Shown piece after piece: positions 16,374 through 32,785 of a stretch of DNA of 34,316 bases. The notes under the pieces are model-generated. The model did not search any database. It worked only from the letters and a program-made list of their open reading frames with translations, and had not been told where the DNA came from. Source of the DNA: Thermoleophilia bacterium (lineage in GTDB: Bacteria > Actinomycetota > Thermoleophilia > Solirubrobacterales > 70-9); contig JAENWU010000015.1 of assembly GCA_016649905.1 (NCBI GenBank), positions 1-34,316 on the forward strand, read 5' to 3'. Each line of letters begins with the position of its first letter. Position 1 is the stretch's first letter. The position numbers were made by a program, and so were the translations under genes.

Positions 16374-17141
16374 GTGTACCGGATGATCATCCGCAAGACG
16401 CCCGAGCAGATCGACCTGATGGCCGCCTCCGGCGAGATCCTCGTCCGCTGCCTGAAGATGGTGACCGCCAAGGCGCGCGCCGGCGTCACCACCGAGGAGC
16501 TCGACGCCGCCGCCGAGAAGTTCATCCGCTCCCAGGACGCGGTGCCGGCCTTCAAGGGCTACCGCGGTTTCCCGGGCTCGATCTGCGCCTCGCCCAACTC
16601 GATGGTGGTGCACGGGATCCCCGGCCCCTACGAGTTGCAGCGCGGCGACATCCTCTCGATCGACGTCGGCGTGATCAAGGACGGCTGGGTCTCCGACGCG
16701 GCGATGACGATCCCGATCGGCCCGATCGACCGCGGCGCCCGCCAGCTGCTCGACGTCACCAAGGCCTCACTCTTCGCCGGCGTCGCGCAGATGCAGGTCG
16801 GCAACCACCTCGGCGACGTTTCCGCGGCGATCCAGCACTCGGTCGAGGCCGAGGGCCTCTCGATCATCCGCACCCTGGTCGGTCACGGGGTCGGGCGCGA
16901 GATGCACGAGGAGCCGCAGGTCCCGAACTTCGGCGAGCCGGGCAAAGGCCCGGAGCTCGAGGAGGGGATGGTGCTGGCGATCGAGCCGATGGTCAATGCC
17001 CGCGGGCCGTTGGTGCGGATGGGGGACGACGGTTGGTCGGTCTACTCCGAGGACGACTCGCTCGCGGCGCACTTCGAGTTCACGGTGGCTGTGACGGCTG
17101 ACGGGCCGCGGATTCTCACGCCCTGGCACGAAGAGAGCTAG
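16374..17141 (+). CDS. map: Methionine aminopeptidase, type I
   Basis: This enzyme removes the initiator methionine from nascent proteins. The 255 residues contain all five metal ligands, D97, D108, H171, E204 and E235, plus the substrate-side histidines H80 and H178. With the GTG start at 16374 these numbers coincide almost exactly with the E. coli enzyme, which supports that start over the ATG at 16383. It is coupled to adk with a 1-nt gap. infA, the expected next gene, is absent. A 4.4 kb segment follows before rpmJ. Confidence 0.96.
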   Translation: MYRMIIRKTPEQIDLMAASGEILVRCLKMVTAKARAGVTTEELDAAAEKFIRSQDAVPAFKGYRGFPGSICASPNSMVVHGIPGPYELQRGDILSIDVGVIKDGWVSDAAMTIPIGPIDRGARQLLDVTKASLFAGVAQMQVGNHLGDVSAAIQHSVEAEGLSIIRTLVGHGVGREMHEEPQVPNFGEPGKGPELEEGMVLAIEPMVNARGPLVRMGDDGWSVYSEDDSLAAHFEFTVAVTADGPRILTPWHEES

Positions 17142-17164
17142 CTCTCGCCGACCTCGGGCCGGTA

Positions 17165-17282
17165 GGGAGGGTGGGGCATCCTCCTACCTTCGCTGGATTT
17201 TTCGCCCGAACCCTCGCCAGCTCCCAAGGAACGGGCAAGCGAAAAATTAACGCCGCTCGTACGGAGGATGCCCCACCCTCCC
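17165..17282 (+). repeat. Long inverted-repeat element, family 1, copy 1 (forward)
   Basis: This 118-bp element has perfect 20-bp arms, GGGAGGGTGGGGCATCCTCC (17165-17184) and its complement (17263-17282). The interior carries the family core: CTGGATTTTTCGCCC near 17193-17207, and GCGAAAAATTAACGCCGC near 17239-17256. ATTTTTCGC and GCGAAAAAT themselves pair, so the whole element folds into one long interrupted hairpin. The same core, reversed, is found at 17442-17559. No frame here looks coding. It lies 23 bp after map. Confidence 0.85.
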
Positions 17283-17342
17283 TCCACGATCCGGGATCGG
17301 CTCGGAGCTGAGCAGATTCGCCCCGGGGCACTTCCAGGCTTC

Positions 17343-17394
17343 GTGAGGTCGCAGCTCTTCTCGCTATCCGGTCGAAAGTGCGACCTCACTTTCG
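17343..17394. other. Mutually exclusive hairpins in the spacer between family 1 copies 1 and 2
   Basis: GTGAGGTCGCA (17343-17353) is perfectly complementary to TGCGACCTCAC (17379-17389). An alternative smaller hairpin pairs CGAAAGT (17373-17379) with ACTTTCG (17388-17394) and uses some of the same bases. The two cannot form together. The 159-bp spacer (17283-17441) otherwise contains nothing I recognise. Confidence 0.5.
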
Positions 17395-17441
17395 AGATGG
17401 GCGGACCTTGTGGGCTGGTGGATCTTCGGGCGGCTTGATGG

Positions 17442-17559
17442 GAGGGGTTGGGGTGCCCGTCGTACGAGCGGCGTCAATTTTTCGCTTGCCTGTTCTTGAG
17501 AGTTTGTGTAGCTCCCGGGCGAAAAATCCAGCGAAGGTAGACGGGTACCCCAACCCCTC
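17442..17559 (-). repeat. Long inverted-repeat element, family 1, copy 2 (reverse)
   Basis: The 118-bp element is bounded by GAGGGGTTGGGGTGCCCGTC (17442-17461) and GACGGGTACCCCAACCCCTC (17540-17559). These are complementary except for one position that would be a G-U wobble in RNA. Read on the reverse strand the interior matches copy 1 closely, from CTACCTTCGCTGGATTTTTC to GACGCCGCTCGTACG. Its length is identical to copy 1. It ends 90 bp before the acylase start. Confidence 0.85.
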
Positions 17560-17649
17560 ACGCCAACCCCTCCGAACCAGATTCCCGGCTGCCCGGCCAG
17601 TCCAATCGGCTAGTGTCTTCCGCAAGCGGCGGGGGCGCCGCTTAAGGGA

Positions 17650-20343
17650 ATGGGAGAGGTTTTGAACGCTCGAGTCTGTCGGTTTGCGCTGCCCTTGATC
17701 CTGGCGGTGGCCGCCTTCGCCCCGTCGGCGAGCGCCGCGACCCCCTCGCCGTACGGGACCAACGACGCGGGAGGCTTCCGCAACGTCTTGCCTCCGGGTG
17801 AGAACGGGCTCGGCACGCTGCTGCAGATCCTCGCCTCCAGAGGCCCGACTCATCCGACGCCTCCGCACTTCGCCGATCAGCAGGCGCTTTACGAAAACCT
17901 CGTCTACGCCAGCCCGACCCTGACCGACGACCAGGTCTCCAACTACTTCAAGGACGCGACCTTCGGCGTGCCCGCTGGGCAGGTCGAATCGATGATCGAA
18001 CCGCGCCCGGGAGTGACGATCCAGCGCGACTCCGCCTACGGCGTGCCCCATATCTACGGCGATACCCGCGCCGACACGATGTTCGGTGCCGGCTATGCCG
18101 GTGCCGCCGACCGCCTCTTCCTGATGGACGTCCTGCGCCACACCGGCCGCGCCGAACTCGCCTCCTTCCTCGGCGGCGCCAACGCCGAAGCCGACGCCGG
18201 CCAGTGGAGCTTCGCTCCCTACACCGAAGCCGACCTCGAAAAGCAGGTCGTGCAGATGCCGCAGATCTACGGCGCCGCCGGTCAGCAGGCCGTGGCCGAC
18301 GTGCAGAGCTATGTCGAAGGGATCAATGCCTACATCGCCGCCGCAACCGTCAACCCGGCGCTGCAACCGGGCGAGTACACGCTGCTGAAAAAGCCGATGG
18401 AAGCGTGGAAAGTGACCGATGTGATCGCGATCGCCTCGCTGGTCGGCGGCATCTTCGGAAAGGGCGGAGGCAACGAGCTCAACTCGGCCCTGACGATGCA
18501 GGCCTTCGTCGAGCGGATGGGCAGAAAGGCTGGGCGCAAGGCCTGGCTCGGCTTCCGCGCCAAGAACGACCCGGAGGCGCCGACGACGATCTCCAAGCCG
18601 TTCCCCTATGAGACTCGCAGCGCTTTCGCCAAGCAGGGACTGGCGCTGCCCGACGAGAACTCGGTGCGCCTGACCCCGACCGCGACGACCTCTTCCGCGC
18701 CGGGAGGCGGCAGCGGACTCTCCAGCCTCGGCGCGCGCCTGCAGCAGGCGATCGCAAGTGCCGGTCACGCCTCCAACTGGGAGCTCGTCTCCGCCAAGCA
18801 CTCGGCAACCGGACACCCGATCGCGGTGATGGGCCCACAGGTTGGCTACTTCGTCCCCCAGATCCTGATGGAGGAGGACCTGCATGGGCCCGGCATCGAT
18901 GCCCGTGGCGCCTCCTTCGCCGGCGTCAACCTCTACGTCCAGCTCGGTCACGGCCGCGACTACGCCTGGAGCGCGACCAGCGCCGGCTCCGACAACGTCG
19001 ACACCTTCGCCGAGGTGCTCTGCAAGGACAAGCTCCACTACCTCTACCGCGGCAAGTGCCTGGCGATGGAGAAGCTCGAAAAGACCGAGAGCTGGGCACC
19101 GAACGCGATCGACACGACCGCGGCCGGCTCACAGACCCTGGTCGCCTACCGGACCGTGCACGGGATCGTCTTCGCCCGCGCCAAGGTGGGCGGCAAGAAG
19201 GTCGCCTACGTGCATCAGCGCAGTACCTACTTCCACGAGGCCGACTCGGTGGTCGGCTTCGGTCAGCTGAACGAACCGGGTCTGGTCACCGGCGTCTCCG
19301 GCTTCAAAAAAGCCGTCTCCAACATCAACTTCACCTTCAACTGGGCCTACGTCGACTCCGAACACATCGCCTACGCGCTCTCCGGCGCCTACCCGCAGCG
19401 GGCCAAGGGCACCTCGCCCGACTTCCCGGTGCTCGGCACCGGCAAGTACGACTGGAAGGGCTTCAAGCCCTCGACCCAGACCGCCGACTATCTGCCGTTC
19501 GCCAAACACCCCCAGCAGGTCGACCCGGATTACCTCGTCTCCTGGAACAACAAGCAGGCGCCGGAATGGGCCGCGGCCGACGACAACTACGGCTACGGGC
19601 CGCTGCAGCGCCAGCAGCTGATCGCCGACAAGGTCAAGCAGAAGACCAAGGGCAAGGGCAAGATGACGATCTCCCAGCTGGTGCAGGCGATGGATGAAGC
19701 GGCGACCCAGGACCTGCGCGGTTACCGGCTGCTGCCGACGATCCTGAAGGCGGTCGGCAAGCCGCAATCGGCCAAGCTGAAGAGCGCGGTGGCGACGCTG
19801 CGCGCTTGGCAGAAGGCCGGTGCCCACCGGCGCGACCTCGACCGCGACGGGATCGACGAGGAAACCCCGGCGATCCAGCTGATGGACGCCTGGTGGCCGA
19901 AGCTGGTCGAAGCTGAGTTCAGGCCGGCGCTCGGCGCGAAGGCGTTCGAACGGCTCGAGGGGATGCTGCAGATCGGCGACTCGGTCGGCGGCTCACCCGA
20001 CGCACCCGCCTTCTACGACGGCTGGTGGGGCTACGTCTCCAAGGACCTGCGCAACGTCTTCGGGTCGAAGCCGAAGGGCGCCTTCAGCCGCAAGTACTGC
20101 GGCGGCGGTTCGCGGGAGAAGTGCGAAGCACTCCTGCAGAAGTCTCTCGCGGCGGCGCTGCAGGTGACTCCGGCCCAGCTCTACGGCGGCGGCAACGGTA
20201 AGTGCGCCGCGAACCCCCAGCCATCCTGCTTCGACCAGAACCGGCCGCAGGTGACCGGCGGGATCGAACTCGGTCCCTTCCCGTTCCAGAACCGGCCGAC
20301 CTTCCAACAGGTCGTGACTCTGACTCAGCGACTCGGCCGCTGA
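17650..20343 (+). CDS. Secreted penicillin-acylase-family (S45) N-terminal-nucleophile amidase
   Basis: The 897-residue protein belongs to the penicillin/cephalosporin acylase family, whose members cleave amide bonds of beta-lactams, N-acyl-homoserine lactones or other acyl amides. A signal peptide (about 1-29, ending SASA) predicts export. The alpha-chain region shows [20 protein letters not shown] (split about 126-145) and [13 protein letters not shown]. The likely nucleophile at the start of the beta chain is Ser375 in [18 protein letters not shown], exposed by autocatalytic cleavage in this family. Substrate cannot be told. The ATG at 17650 is assumed. A TTG at 17662 with GGAG 5 nt upstream is an alternative and keeps the signal peptide. 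It interrupts the ribosomal operon. Confidence 0.88.
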
Positions 20344-29322: not shown

Positions 29323-29406
29323 TGCCCGTATCAACACCAGAGCCGGTCAAGGTAGCGGGCGCCCCGGCCTGGTTGGCCGGCCAAGATGGGATAATTGAGC
29401 GTAGGC

Positions 29407-30654
29407 ATGGGGAAAGTCGTCGATATCGAGTCAAAACCGCGCCGTCGGACGCGCCGCAAAAAGCCGTCTAAGACGGCGCTGGTGCTCGGCGGCGGCGGCT
29501 TCACCGGCGGCGTCTACGAGATCGGCGCCCTGCGCGCGCTCGACCTGCTGGCGGTCAACAGCACGGTCAATAACTTCGACGTTTACGTCGGCACCAGCGC
29601 CGGCTCCTTTGTCGCCTCGATGCTCTGCAACGGCGTCACTCCGGATGAGATGATGCAGGTGCTGAACTCCCGCGTCCCCTCCGAGCTCGAGGACCTCGAC
29701 CTCGACAAGGTGCTGAAGCCCAACTACCTCGGGTTTGCCCAGAAAGCGCTGGCGCTGCCGCTGAGGACGCTGGAGCTGGTCCGGGCGCTGGCGCGGATCG
29801 GCGAGATCTCGGCGATCGACATCGGCGTCGGTCTGGCTGAGGCGCTGCCGACCGGCCTCTACTCGGGCTCCGGCCTGGCCGACTACGTCGCCGAGGTGCT
29901 CAGCGATGGCGGCCGGGTCAACGACTTCCGCCTGCTCGATCGTGAGCTCTACCTGACCTCCACCGACCTCGACACCTGCGAGCGGATCGTCTTCGGCGAG
30001 GACGGCTGGCAGGACGTGCCGATCTCCAAGGCGGTGCAGTGCTCGACGGCGCTGCCGATCGTCTACAAACCGGTCGAGCTGAAGGGCCGGCATCTGGTCG
30101 ACGGCGGCATCCGCTCGACCACCAACGTCGACATCGCGGTCGAAAAGGGCGCCAAATTCATCATCGTCGTCAACCCTCTGGTCCCTTACGTCAACGACTT
30201 CGAGAAGACGATCCCGACTGTCTTCGGGACCCGCGTGCGCCGCGTCTCCGACATGGGGCTGCCGGCGATCGCCAACCAGACCTTCCGCCTGATCGCCCAC
30301 CAGCGCCTGCACCAGGCGGTCGACATGTGGCAGGAGAAGTACCCGGGCGTCGACATCATTCTGATCGAGCCCGAGCCGACCGACGAGCTGATGTTCGGCA
30401 CGCCGATCATGGACTACTCGCGGCGCCTGAAAATCGCCCGCCACGGTTTCGAATCGGTCACCGCCACCCTGGCCAAGGACTACGAGCGCTTCGAGGAGAT
30501 CGCCGGCCGCCACGGCCTCGAAATCTCCGGCAGTCGCGTTCGCAGGGTCGTTGAGCGCGCCGCCGAGGTCGAGCCCGAGCAGGTTTCCGCGTGGAAACGC
30601 GTCCTCGAGCAGACGACCTCCGTGCTGCTGCGGCAGTCTGGCGAGGCTTCTTAG
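29407..30654 (+). CDS. Patatin-like phospholipase
   Basis: The family hydrolyses acyl chains of phospholipids or other lipids with a Ser-Asp dyad. The 415 residues have a basic N terminus (10-22), the oxyanion loop GGGGFTGG (28-35), the nucleophile elbow G62-T-S64-A-G66, and the catalytic Asp232 in VDGGI. A DUF3336-like or surface-antigen domain is not seen; the C-terminal part is helical and unassigned. The ATG at 29407 is my choice. A TTG at 29395 is possible. GATAAT at 29390-29395 may be a -10 box that leaves almost no leader. Confidence 0.9.
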   Translation: MGKVVDIESKPRRRTRRKKPSKTALVLGGGGFTGGVYEIGALRALDLLAVNSTVNNFDVYVGTSAGSFVASMLCNGVTPDEMMQVLNSRVPSELEDLDLDKVLKPNYLGFAQKALALPLRTLELVRALARIGEISAIDIGVGLAEALPTGLYSGSGLADYVAEVLSDGGRVNDFRLLDRELYLTSTDLDTCERIVFGEDGWQDVPISKAVQCSTALPIVYKPVELKGRHLVDGGIRSTTNVDIAVEKGAKFIIVVNPLVPYVNDFEKTIPTVFGTRVRRVSDMGLPAIANQTFRLIAHQRLHQAVDMWQEKYPGVDIILIEPEPTDELMFGTPIMDYSRRLKIARHGFESVTATLAKDYERFEEIAGRHGLEISGSRVRRVVERAAEVEPEQVSAWKRVLEQTTSVLLRQSGEAS

Positions 30655-30660
30655 TTCGAC

Positions 30661-30769
30661 GGGTGGGGTGTCCCCGCCGCTTGCTGGATTTTTCGCCCCG
30701 TCCCTCGCCCATCTCTCGAGGACGGGCGAGCGAAAAATTAACGCCGCGCGCTCTGGGGACACCCCACCC
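30661..30769 (+). repeat. Long inverted-repeat element, family 1, copy 3 (forward)
   Basis: The arms are GGGTGGGGTGTCCCC (30661-30675) and its perfect complement (30755-30769). The interior repeats the family core with CTTGCTGGATTTTTCGCCCC and GCGAAAAATTAACGCCGCGC. It is 109 bp long, starts 6 bp after the patatin stop, and is in the same orientation as copy 1. The 107-bp spacer to copy 4 (30770-30876) contains a small hairpin, GCCTC-G-GGC-AAA-GCC-G-GAGGC, and nothing else that I recognise. Confidence 0.85.
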
Positions 30770-30876
30770 CTCCACACCAGCCGTCGCCCAGAATCTCAGC
30801 AGCCTCGGGCAAAGCCGGAGGCGACAAGAGGGGCCCGTGGCGTTTCCAGCTGGCTCCTAGAGGAGTGGAGACGATC

Positions 30877-30994
30877 GGCGGGAGCTGGGTGCCCCTGGAG
30901 CGCGCGGCGTCCATTTTTCGCTTGTGCCTTTGCGAGAGATGGCGAGGGAGCGGGCGAAAAATCCAGCAAGCGGAAGGGGCACCCAGCTCCCGCC
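30877..30994 (-). repeat. Long inverted-repeat element, family 1, copy 4 (reverse)
   Basis: The perfect 20-bp arms are GGCGGGAGCTGGGTGCCCCT (30877-30896) and its complement (30975-30994). On the reverse strand the interior reads CGCTTGCTGGATTTTTCGCC, then a variable loop, then GCGAAAAATGGACGCCGCGC. It is 118 bp long, like copies 1 and 2. It ends 6 bp before the stop codon of the convergent acyl-CoA ligase gene. Confidence 0.85.
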
Positions 30995-31000
30995 CCTCGC

Positions 31001-32785
31001 CTACGCTGCGTAGAGCTGCTCGATCTCGCTCTCGTGCTTTTGCGTGACCACGGCGCGTTTGACCTTGAGCGTGGGCGTCAGCTCGCCCGTCTCCTGCGAG
31101 AGGTCGTGGGGGAGGATCGCGATCTTCTTGACCTGCTCGACCCGGGCGAAGTTCTGGTTGATCTTCTCGACGTGGGCGTCGATCGAGGCCTTGACGTCGG
31201 CGTTGGTGGCGAGCTCGGCGGGGTCCTCGGCCAGGTCGTGCTCTTTGGCGTAGGCGATCGCTTCTTCGGGGTCGAGGGTGACGAGGGCGACCAGGTAAGG
31301 GCGGCGGTCGCCGACGACCACGCACTGGGAGACCAGCGGGTGCTGCTTGATTTCGGCCTCGAGGTTGGCCGGGGTGATGTTCTTGCCTCCGGCGGTGATG
31401 ATGATGTCCTTTTTGCGGCCGGTGATCTTGATGAAGCCGTCGGAATCGATCTCGCCGAGGTCGCCGGTGCGCAGCCAGCCGTCGACGATCGTCTCCCGGG
31501 TCGCCTCCTCGTTCTTGTGGTACCCCTGGAAGACGTTGGCGCCCTTGACGAGGATCTCGCCGTCCCCGGCGATCTTCACCTCGCAGCCGGGGAAGGGTTT
31601 GCCGATCGTGCCGACCTTGAAGTCGTCAGGGGTGGAGATCGTCGCCGCGGTCGAGGTCTCGGTCATGCCCCAGCCCTCGAGCACGAGCACCCCGGCGGCG
31701 TCGAAGAAGCGCAGGATCTCCGGGTTGATCGGCGCCGCGCCGGAGACGGCGAGGCGCAGGTTGCCGCCGAAGAGATTGCGGATTTTCGACAGCACCTGCT
31801 TGTCGGCGAAGGCGTATTTGCGCTGCAGCAGGAAGCCTGGCTTGCGGCCGTTGCGTTCGACTTCGTGCATCTTCGCGCCGACCTTGATCGACCAGTCGAA
31901 GATCGCTTTTTTCAGGCCGCCGGCTTTTTCCATGCCGCTGGTGGCGGCGGTGTAGATCTTCTCGAAGATCCGCGGCACCGAGGGGAAGTAGGTCGGTTTC
32001 AGTTCGGCCAGGTTTGGCAGGATCTTCAGCGGGTCCCGCTCCCAGTAAGCGATCGTCGAACCGAGGTCGAAGCTGCCCAGCTGGATCAGCAGGGCGAAGG
32101 AGTGGGCCAGCGGCAGGTAGAGGTAGCTGACGTCTTCGGGCTCGATCACGCTGGTCGAAGCGACCATGTCGAGCATCGCCCGGTAGTTGCCGTGGCTGAT
32201 CACGCAGCCCTTCGGCGGCCCGGTCGTCCCGGACGTGTAGATGAACGTGCAGATGTCCTGCGGAGTCACCGCCGTGTAGCGCTGCTCCCAGACCGAGGGG
32301 TCGACGCCGGCGCCCTTGGCGGCCAGCTCCTCCATCGAGATCGCTTCCGGGTCGCTGCCCGTCATCAGCACGATCTGCTCCAACTTCGGCAGCTGCGAGC
32401 GCACCTGGCGGACCTTCTCCAGCTGTTCGGCGTCCTCGACGACGACGACCTTGGCGTCGGAGTTGTCGAGGACGTAGCGGCACTCCTCGGGGGAATTGGT
32501 CTGGTAGATCGGCACCACGGTGGCGCCGATCGCCAGCGCCGCGAAGTCGAAATAGGTCCACTCGGGCCGCGTGTTGCCGAGGATCGAGACCCGGTCGCCC
32601 TTGGCGATCCCGAGCTCGGTCAGGCCCAGCGCCAGCGGCCGGACGATCTCCAGGACCTCGGAGAAACTGCGGCTGATCCACTGCTCGCCGTCCTTGTAGC
32701 GCACGGCCGGACGGTCGCCGTAGATCTCCGCCGCTCGTTGCAGCAAGTCAGCGAGCGTCTTGGAATTGGTCCCCCTCCCCTCCAT
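31001..32785 (-). CDS. Long-chain fatty acid-CoA ligase (AMP-forming)
   Basis: The enzyme activates fatty acids to acyl-CoA through an acyl-adenylate. The 594 residues hold the ANL-superfamily motifs: the P-loop YTSGTTGPPKG (183-193), EGWGMTE (370-376), GWLRTGD (436-442) and GRKKD (456-460). The catalytic-lysine region of the C-terminal domain is also present. It is closest in feel to the FadD15/long-chain group common in Actinobacteria, but substrate length cannot be inferred. The ATG at 32785 lies 15 bp after the stop of a small upstream gene on the same strand and has no ribosome binding site, so coupling or a leaderless start is likely. Confidence 0.93.
   Translation of the reverse strand: MEGRGTNSKTLADLLQRAAEIYGDRPAVRYKDGEQWISRSFSEVLEIVRPLALGLTELGIAKGDRVSILGNTRPEWTYFDFAALAIGATVVPIYQTNSPEECRYVLDNSDAKVVVVEDAEQLEKVRQVRSQLPKLEQIVLMTGSDPEAISMEELAAKGAGVDPSVWEQRYTAVTPQDICTFIYTSGTTGPPKGCVISHGNYRAMLDMVASTSVIEPEDVSYLYLPLAHSFALLIQLGSFDLGSTIAYWERDPLKILPNLAELKPTYFPSVPRIFEKIYTAATSGMEKAGGLKKAIFDWSIKVGAKMHEVERNGRKPGFLLQRKYAFADKQVLSKIRNLFGGNLRLAVSGAAPINPEILRFFDAAGVLVLEGWGMTETSTAATISTPDDFKVGTIGKPFPGCEVKIAGDGEILVKGANVFQGYHKNEEATRETIVDGWLRTGDLGEIDSDGFIKITGRKKDIIITAGGKNITPANLEAEIKQHPLVSQCVVVGDRRPYLVALVTLDPEEAIAYAKEHDLAEDPAELATNADVKASIDAHVEKINQNFARVEQVKKIAILPHDLSQETGELTPTLKVKRAVVTQKHESEIEQLYAA

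What the first reader, a model, noticed from the sequence alone, without database searches (positions are those of the whole stretch)
17165..17559. Paired, oppositely oriented long-hairpin repeats after map (family 1, pair A)
Two 118-bp elements lie head to head 159 bp apart. Each has its own 20-bp arms that pair within the element, and the pairing is perfect in one and has a single G-U-compatible change in the other. The arms differ between copies, while the cores (CTGGATTTTTCGCC ... GCGAAAAATT.ACGCCGC) are conserved in reversed orientation. Identical length, core conservation and arm covariation suggest selection on a folded RNA or DNA structure, or a non-autonomous mobile unit resembling a BIME. 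I do not know a described family matching it.
Basis: partly seen in the sequence, partly recalled or inferred. Interest (0 to 1): 0.82.

Follow-up and report, generated by a model that had tools for sequence, protein, structure and literature searches.

The report
Nested REP-like intergenic hairpin repeats
Bacteria of one actinobacterial genus carry a family of long, self-complementary DNA repeats, often in mirror-image pairs just after gene ends, which look like a new variant of the small mobile palindromes (REPs) known from other bacteria.

Summary
The two 118-bp hairpins lie inside a ~440-bp repeated unit (17141-17581): hairpin A, a third hairpin with a CTATS loop, and hairpin B inverted. 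A covariance model finds the family in 9 of 12 genus genomes at E<=0.01 (four of these have 4 rows or fewer), 6 of 12 at E<=1e-4, and in 2 of 12 genera of the family. Named carriers are Solirubrobacterales MAGs. Outer and inner stems change compensatorily (17 of 27 pairs; 6 of 9) around a fixed mismatched loop. Counted in each copy's own register, G.T is rarer than A.C (inner 2 against 6 of 459 cells, outer 4 against 14 of 918), so pairing looks kept as DNA. Short orthologous intervals without hairpins and different cores after hppA show gain or loss. The fixed loop strands are the reverse complements of CGTC/CGTT (37/14 of 51) and CCA (51 of 51), the published tag and tail of CGTC-REPs; loop length and the AT rule do not fit. 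Y1/RAYT was found in 0 of 12 genomes. Best reading: REPIN/BIME-like non-autonomous mobile DNA, mover unknown.

The parts
17141..17581 (+). Composite repeat unit: A hairpin, spacer with central hairpin, B hairpin
   Evidence: query 42-482 (17141-17581) matches C142, C55 and C90 of the own genome over almost the whole unit at 75-79% identity; partial units elsewhere; alignment
17165..17282 (+). Hairpin A (type I core), starting about 20 nt after the map stop codon
   Evidence: 17161-17284, 127.8 bits; 21-bp perfect outer stem
17193..17196 (+). CTGG of A: reverse complement of the CCA(G) tail
   Evidence: CCAG in 50, CCAA in 1 of 51 copies
17197..17205 (+). Inner stem of A, 5' half
17239..17247 (+). 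Inner stem of A, 3' half
17248..17255 (+). TAACGCCG of A: its reverse complement holds the tag, here CGTT
   Evidence: CGTC 37, CGTT 14 of 51
17343..17389 (+). Central hairpin (R2 family), 11-bp arms 17343-17353 and 17379-17389, CTATS loop at 17364-17368
   Evidence: 17339-17394, 58.9 bits; stand-alone copies in the genus
17442..17559 (-). Hairpin B (type I core), inverted partner of A
   Evidence: (17440-17563, 132.2 bits)
17472..17475 (+). CGTC tag of B
17528..17531 (+). CCAG tail of B
30653..30775 (+). Second pair, hairpin A2, directly after the patatin-like gene (29395-30654,+)
   Evidence: (112.8 bits)
30876..30997 (-). Second pair, hairpin B2, directly after the convergent AMP-binding-enzyme gene (31001-32785,-)
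   Evidence: (103.5 bits)

Best explanation
These are copies of a REP/REPIN-like family of non-autonomous mobile palindromic DNA. Each ~118-bp copy is a nested palindrome: an outer stem of about 20 bp, a fixed mismatched internal loop whose two strands read, in the reverse orientation, as a CGTC-type tag and a CCA tail, an inner stem of about 9 bp and a loop of 31-39 nt. Two copies in inverted orientation, tags facing inward, with a spacer that in this species often holds a third REP-like hairpin, form the unit that spreads. Shown: copy number, inverted doublets, occupied and hairpin-free orthologous intervals, compensatory stem changes without a G.U excess in register-aware counts, fixed tag and tail, placement just after stop codons. 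Inferred: the unit moves as single-stranded or extruded hairpin DNA recognised through tag and tail by an enzyme supplied in trans that is not a Y1/RAYT transposase; the stems are kept complementary by hairpin-templated repair (template switching) plus the need for a hairpin substrate; copies persist after stop codons because they do little harm there and may serve as bidirectional terminators.
For: Copies: 79 BLAST rows at E<=1 in the own genome, several rows per hairpin; 9 of 12 genus genomes, E<=0.01; 9 of 50 family genomes, E<=1e-4, 2 of 12 genera. Near-identical own copies: C79 and C120 95.8% over 237 bp. Doublets: 20 of 20 neighbouring copies are + then -. Place: 0 of 79 chosen hairpins inside a called gene; 55 of 79 have a sense gene ending within 60 nt on the 5' side, median 18 nt; 23 convergent, 28 tandem, 2 divergent of 53 units with both neighbours. 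Covariation. DNA rather than RNA. Gain or loss: map-Penicil_amidase interval with an R1 match in 1 of 10 readable relatives; patatin/AMP-binding interval of 24 and 21 bp in G002 and G003, remnants in G004, mosaic in G001 (by eye); deletion derivative in C96. Tag and tail. Published REP dimers, REPs set in palindromes, REPINs.
Against: No transposase linked to the family was found; PF01797 was found in 0 of 12 genus genomes. No target-site duplication was seen by eye at the two intervals compared. Six sites are shared between species among 59 units, so part of the distribution is inheritance. Against the full window unit most own matches are 71-87% identical. By fixed columns of the 25-copy alignment G.U (15) exceeds A.C (5). 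The loop is far longer than in published CGTC-REPs.
Confidence: 0.68

Rival explanations
1. Host-encoded bidirectional transcription terminators or insulators: each hairpin ends the transcript of the gene before it, and pairs sit between convergent genes.
For: 55 of 79 lie within 60 nt after a sense stop codon; 23 convergent against 2 divergent units; after hppA the same place holds simple G/C hairpins in G004, G007 and G011 and nested hairpins with other cores in G001, G000, G002 and a second G007 copy (classed by eye), as if a hairpin of any kind were wanted there.
Against: No T-run follows the stems printed (by eye); relatives do without at two loci; 20 of 79 have an antisense gene on the 5' side; a fixed tag and tail are not needed for a terminator.
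Confidence: 0.25
2. No function: old repeats whose arms stay complementary only because hairpin-templated replication errors copy one arm onto the other.
For: Several alternative inner stems, nearly all perfectly paired, with few mismatched intermediates, as template switching predicts (PMC8794818, abstract and passages).
Against: The internal loop between the two paired stems stays mismatched, with T34, G35 and G36 and most of ACGCCG invariant in 51 of 51 copies, which pure correction should erase; doublets and gain or loss need a further process.
Confidence: 0.15
3. A structured RNA family (3' UTR element or small RNA) read from the strand of the preceding gene.
For: Covariation, sense placement after genes, and 15 G.U against 5 A.C by fixed columns of A1.
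Against: No Rfam match; register-aware counts show 2 G.T against 6 A.C (inner) and 4 against 14 (outer); both strands fold far better than shuffles.
Confidence: 0.06
4. Assembly or binning artefact of metagenome-assembled genomes.
For: The window's genome is in 212 contigs and the two named carriers are MAGs; copies reach the ends of C42 and C79.
Against: Two MAGs of different named records carry the family, between genes shared with other species and with diverged sequences.
Confidence: 0.01

Closest known systems
CGTC-tagged REPs (PMC3733652; abstract, passages, sections 7 and 14 seen)
   Same: CGTC-type tag on one side of the stem, CCA tail on the other, short stem with several complementary types, mostly inverted dimers with spacers that may hold stem-loops, mostly downstream of genes, no transposase associated in that paper; some are set inside larger palindromes (H. 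neapolitanus CGTC-1).
   Different: Loop 31-39 nt instead of 4-5; stem starts G-C in 43 of 51, not A-T; own covarying ~20-bp outer stem; unit ~440 bp; that paper lists five other phyla for CGTC repeats and has no occurrence of 'actinobacteria'.
REPINs with RAYT transposases (PMC3116915; outline and abstract seen)
   Same: A REP doublet in inverted orientation is the replicating unit and can fold as hairpin DNA.
   Different: Y1_Tnp found in 0 of 12 genus genomes; no GTAG tag among the conserved motifs; units much longer.
BIMEs of enterobacteria (recalled; named in the abstract start of PMC2817692)
   Same: Palindromic repeats in alternating orientation, composite.
   Different: Sequence, size and nesting; gyrase or IHF binding not tested.
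ERIC/IRU, RUP, Correia and other bacterial MITEs (PMC2229807; passages seen)
   Same: 100-200 bp non-autonomous intergenic elements that fold as long stem-loops.
   Different: Most of those have terminal inverted repeats, TA ends and target duplications; here the outer arms differ between copies and no duplication was seen.

Membership tests
CGTC-REP superfamily | CGTC motif at one end, unpaired | tested here: met
   CGTC 37, CGTT 14 of 51 type I copies by alignment column; in the own species 14 of 17 are CGTT. It falls in the predicted internal loop
CGTC-REP superfamily | CCA tail at the other end | tested here: met
   CCAG 50, CCAA 1 of 51
CGTC-REP superfamily | 8-9 bp stem with A-T pairs at first and second position | tested here: not met
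   Stem length about right (perfect runs of 9-10 bp in 35 of 51; the script failed to find the stem in 7), but the first pair is G-C in 43 and A-T in 8 of 51
CGTC-REP superfamily | 4-5 nt loop | tested here: not met
   31-39 nt between the 9-bp inner stem halves, median 33
CGTC-REP superfamily | Inverted dimers predominate | tested here: met
   20 of 20 neighbouring copies within 400 bp are + then -
REPIN/RAYT | Y1 tyrosine transposase (RAYT) in the genome | tested here: not met
   PF01797 found in 0 of 12 genus genomes; found in 5 of 14 control genomes. Genomes are 78-100% complete
REPIN/RAYT | GTAG tag beside the hairpin | tested here: not met
   The conserved loop strands are CTGG and (A/G)ACGCCG-like
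Classical MITE | Target-site duplication; terminal repeats fixed between copies | tested here: inconclusive
   No duplication seen by eye at two intervals; outer arms vary between copies
Known RNA family | Rfam covariance-model match | tested here: not met
   0 matches at gathering score in the window
Intrinsic terminator | G/C stem followed by a T-run; terminates in vivo | not testable with these tools
   No T-run seen in the copies printed; termination itself needs RNA data

The most novel reading that the evidence does not exclude
A two-layer mobile palindrome system: terminator-like outer palindromes after genes act as docking sites into which different hairpin cores are exchanged (after hppA: no core, or cores of types I, II and III in different genomes), moved as single-stranded hairpin DNA by an enzyme other than RAYT, which would also be a candidate mover for CGTC-type REPs.
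Probability: 0.2. Interest if true: 0.75.

Novelty: new variant of a known kind. Interest (0 to 1): 0.5.

Why it matters
The paper that defined CGTC-REPs found no transposase for them (PMC3733652). A genus in which no Y1 enzyme was found, yet which carries an apparently CGTC-tagged, nested and turning-over version, beside a close species with few or no copies of either hairpin family (G010: 3 weak R1 rows, 0 R2), gives a comparative setting to look for the mover and to separate selection on structure from template-switch correction.

Tried and rejected
Rfam: no match. tRNA/tmRNA: none. Phage and plasmid records: no match. Viral contigs: no match to a strict pattern. The strict pattern found nothing in named genomes; a pattern from two relatives found 24 stretches. 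RAYT as mover: not supported in this genus. Structured RNA on the sense strand: not supported by register-aware counts, though a fixed-column count leans that way. Integron attC sites, group II introns and retrons were considered from memory and dropped without a test. An autonomous copy (a gene between inverted hairpins) was looked for only in the R1 rows printed, which are capped lists; none was seen. That the outer arm is itself a small hairpin (mean 4.7 pairs against 3.0 in shuffles, 26 of 61 arms at p<0.05) is suggestive only, since the arms are related. PMC2267715 (outline seen) describes many bacterial stem-loop families; no match was looked for.

Rows dropped: one search collapsed copies with the same core and kept 29; A1 uses 25 of them (two from C11, the C96 hybrid and one G004 copy left out). 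The 79 hairpins (33 own, 22 G001, 9 G002, 15 G004) and the 51 of A4 were chosen by me from R1 matches in fetched loci, not all matches; weak hits in L106, L147 and L148 were left out. Gene calls come from a simple codon-usage caller trained on window genes. Six units at contig edges are outside the 53. The tag counts (36/13/2) put two copies wrongly; one search recounts them by alignment column.

Full report
1. Observation. The first has a 21-bp perfect outer stem, the second 20 bp with one mismatch, G-T on the + strand. A two-sided core pattern occurs 4 times in the window, mean 0.00 in 100 shuffles. All 8 folds beat each of 200 shuffles. Rfam finds nothing.

2. What the unit is. BLAST of 17100-17650 against the own genome (a 2.9-Mb, 212-contig, 92% complete assembly whose contig C152 is the window) gives matches spanning almost exactly 17141-17581 in C142, C55 and C90 at 75-79% identity, and partial units elsewhere. 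The aligned unit is hairpin A, a spacer with a third hairpin (17343-17389, loop CTATS), and hairpin B inverted. Own copies are mostly well diverged, but C79 and C120 are 95.8% alike over 237 bp; C79 and C42 are identical over 136 bp at contig ends and may be one locus. C96 carries a deletion derivative that fuses the outer half of A to B across the shared ATTTTTCGC. Several of its own-genome hits (C90, C55, C197, C79, C133, C120, C100, C142) lie inside units; others stand alone. Of the 52 sources, R2 was found beside an A/B pair only in the window.

3. Spread. With stricter filters it matches 9 of 50 family genomes at E<=1e-4: 6 of 12 in the genus and 3 in one other genus, so 2 of 12 genera. 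A pattern from G001 and G004 copies names the carriers as Solirubrobacterales MAGs JACDGU01 and JADGPJ01: 24 stretches, with contig lengths equal to those of G001 and G004 contigs.

4. Structure. On 25 copies, 17 of 27 pairs have changes on both sides, 96.6% of cells pair against 80.6% in shuffles, covariation score 0.491 against 0.200. On 51 copies from four species the 9-pair inner stem pairs in 98.5% of cells, 6 of 9 pairs change on both sides, score 0.339 against 0.105. Slid registers score far lower in both. Related copies can exceed shuffles without structure, so the slid registers weigh more. Between the stems a mismatched loop is nearly invariant: CTGG on one side, ACGCCG with its preceding base on the other. 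In each copy's own register the inner stem has 450 Watson-Crick, 2 G.T, 6 A.C and 1 other of 459 cells, the outer stem 882, 4, 14 and 18 of 918; a lenient, longer outer-stem count on 79 copies gives 35 G.U, 57 A.C and 53 other. By fixed columns of the 25-copy alignment, however, G.U cells number 15 against 5 A.C, leaving out one column pair that is G-U in 22 of 25; part of this is register slip in that alignment. An RNA on the sense strand should tolerate G.U over A.C; the register-aware counts do not show it, so I read the pairing as a DNA property.

5. Place and arrangement. Of 79 chosen hairpins none lies inside a called gene; 55 have a sense gene ending within 60 nt on the 5' side (median 18 nt), 2 a sense gene farther off, 20 an antisense gene (median 93 nt), 2 none. 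Of 53 units with both neighbours 23 are convergent, 28 tandem and 2 divergent. Every neighbouring doublet within 400 bp, 20 of 20, is + then -, with 76-202 bp between. Partners can have different core types (by eye).

6. Gain and loss. From map to the Penicil_amidase-family gene there are 508 bp here. Of 11 relatives' loci, 10 show the interval (G001 ends before it); R1 matches inside it only in G011, which carries there a pair of hairpins with another core; G004, G010 and G002 have 74, 67 and 89 nt. The interval between the patatin-like and AMP-binding genes could be read in 9 of 12 genomes: 24 bp in G002, 21 bp in G003, 96 bp with remnants in G004, a type I/type II mosaic in G001, other sequence in G006, G008, G010 and G011 (by eye). 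After hppA (11 copies from 10 genomes, classed by eye) there is a simple G/C hairpin in G004, one G007 copy and G011, a type I core in G001, type II in G000, type III in G002 and the other G007 copy, and other hairpins not classed in G003, G005, G006 and G010. Six sites are shared between species among 59 units, so some copies are inherited.

7. Comparison. PMC3733652 (abstract, passages, sections 7 and 14) defines CGTC-REPs by an unpaired CGTC tag, an 8-9 bp stem that almost always begins with A-T pairs, a 4-5 nt loop and a CCA tail, mostly in dimers, without associated transposase; it also describes REPs set inside larger palindromes. Here tag (CGTC 37, CGTT 14 of 51; in the own species 3 and 14) and tail (CCA 51 of 51) fit; loop (31-39 nt) and the A-T rule do not. 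So it works like a CGTC-REP doublet but is not filed as a member. REPINs (PMC3116915, abstract) share the inverted-doublet logic but go with RAYTs, and Y1_Tnp was found in 0 of 12 genomes here. Template switching can make and keep paired arms (PMC8794818, abstract and passages); the invariant mismatched loop argues that this alone is not enough. My searches of open-licence papers listed no description of these repeats; I saw listings and abstract starts, not the papers.

8. Verdict. A real, modular family of nested palindromic repeats across much of one genus; mobile-DNA reading likely, mover unknown, possible use as bidirectional terminators open.

Noticed in passing
L045 (C133), L110, L113, L137, L220: Another small hairpin type (GGTTCCTTTT...AAGGAACC-like) lies between A/B hairpins or alone in several species (by eye).
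   Followed up: no
L148 (map to Penicil_amidase interval), L110 intergenic: Hairpins with about 18-25 bp stems and a loop near ACARCGGGAGGTTYG ('type IV'): a pair in G011, one in G001 (by eye).
   Followed up: partly
L199 5347-5425 and 8326-8404, L200 18796-18878, L202 12772-12839: Stems of 21-28 bp, perfect or with one mismatch, with 26-27 nt loops of unrelated sequence in G002 and G010; the near-constant loop length is unexplained.
   Followed up: no
L054 about 1495-1550: A stand-alone CTATS hairpin in G001 may lie inside a coding region (impression from the printed flanks; reading frame not checked).
   Followed up: no
G000 C42 start, C79 end: Copies reach contig ends, so the assembly may be broken at repeats and the copy number underestimated.
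   Followed up: no
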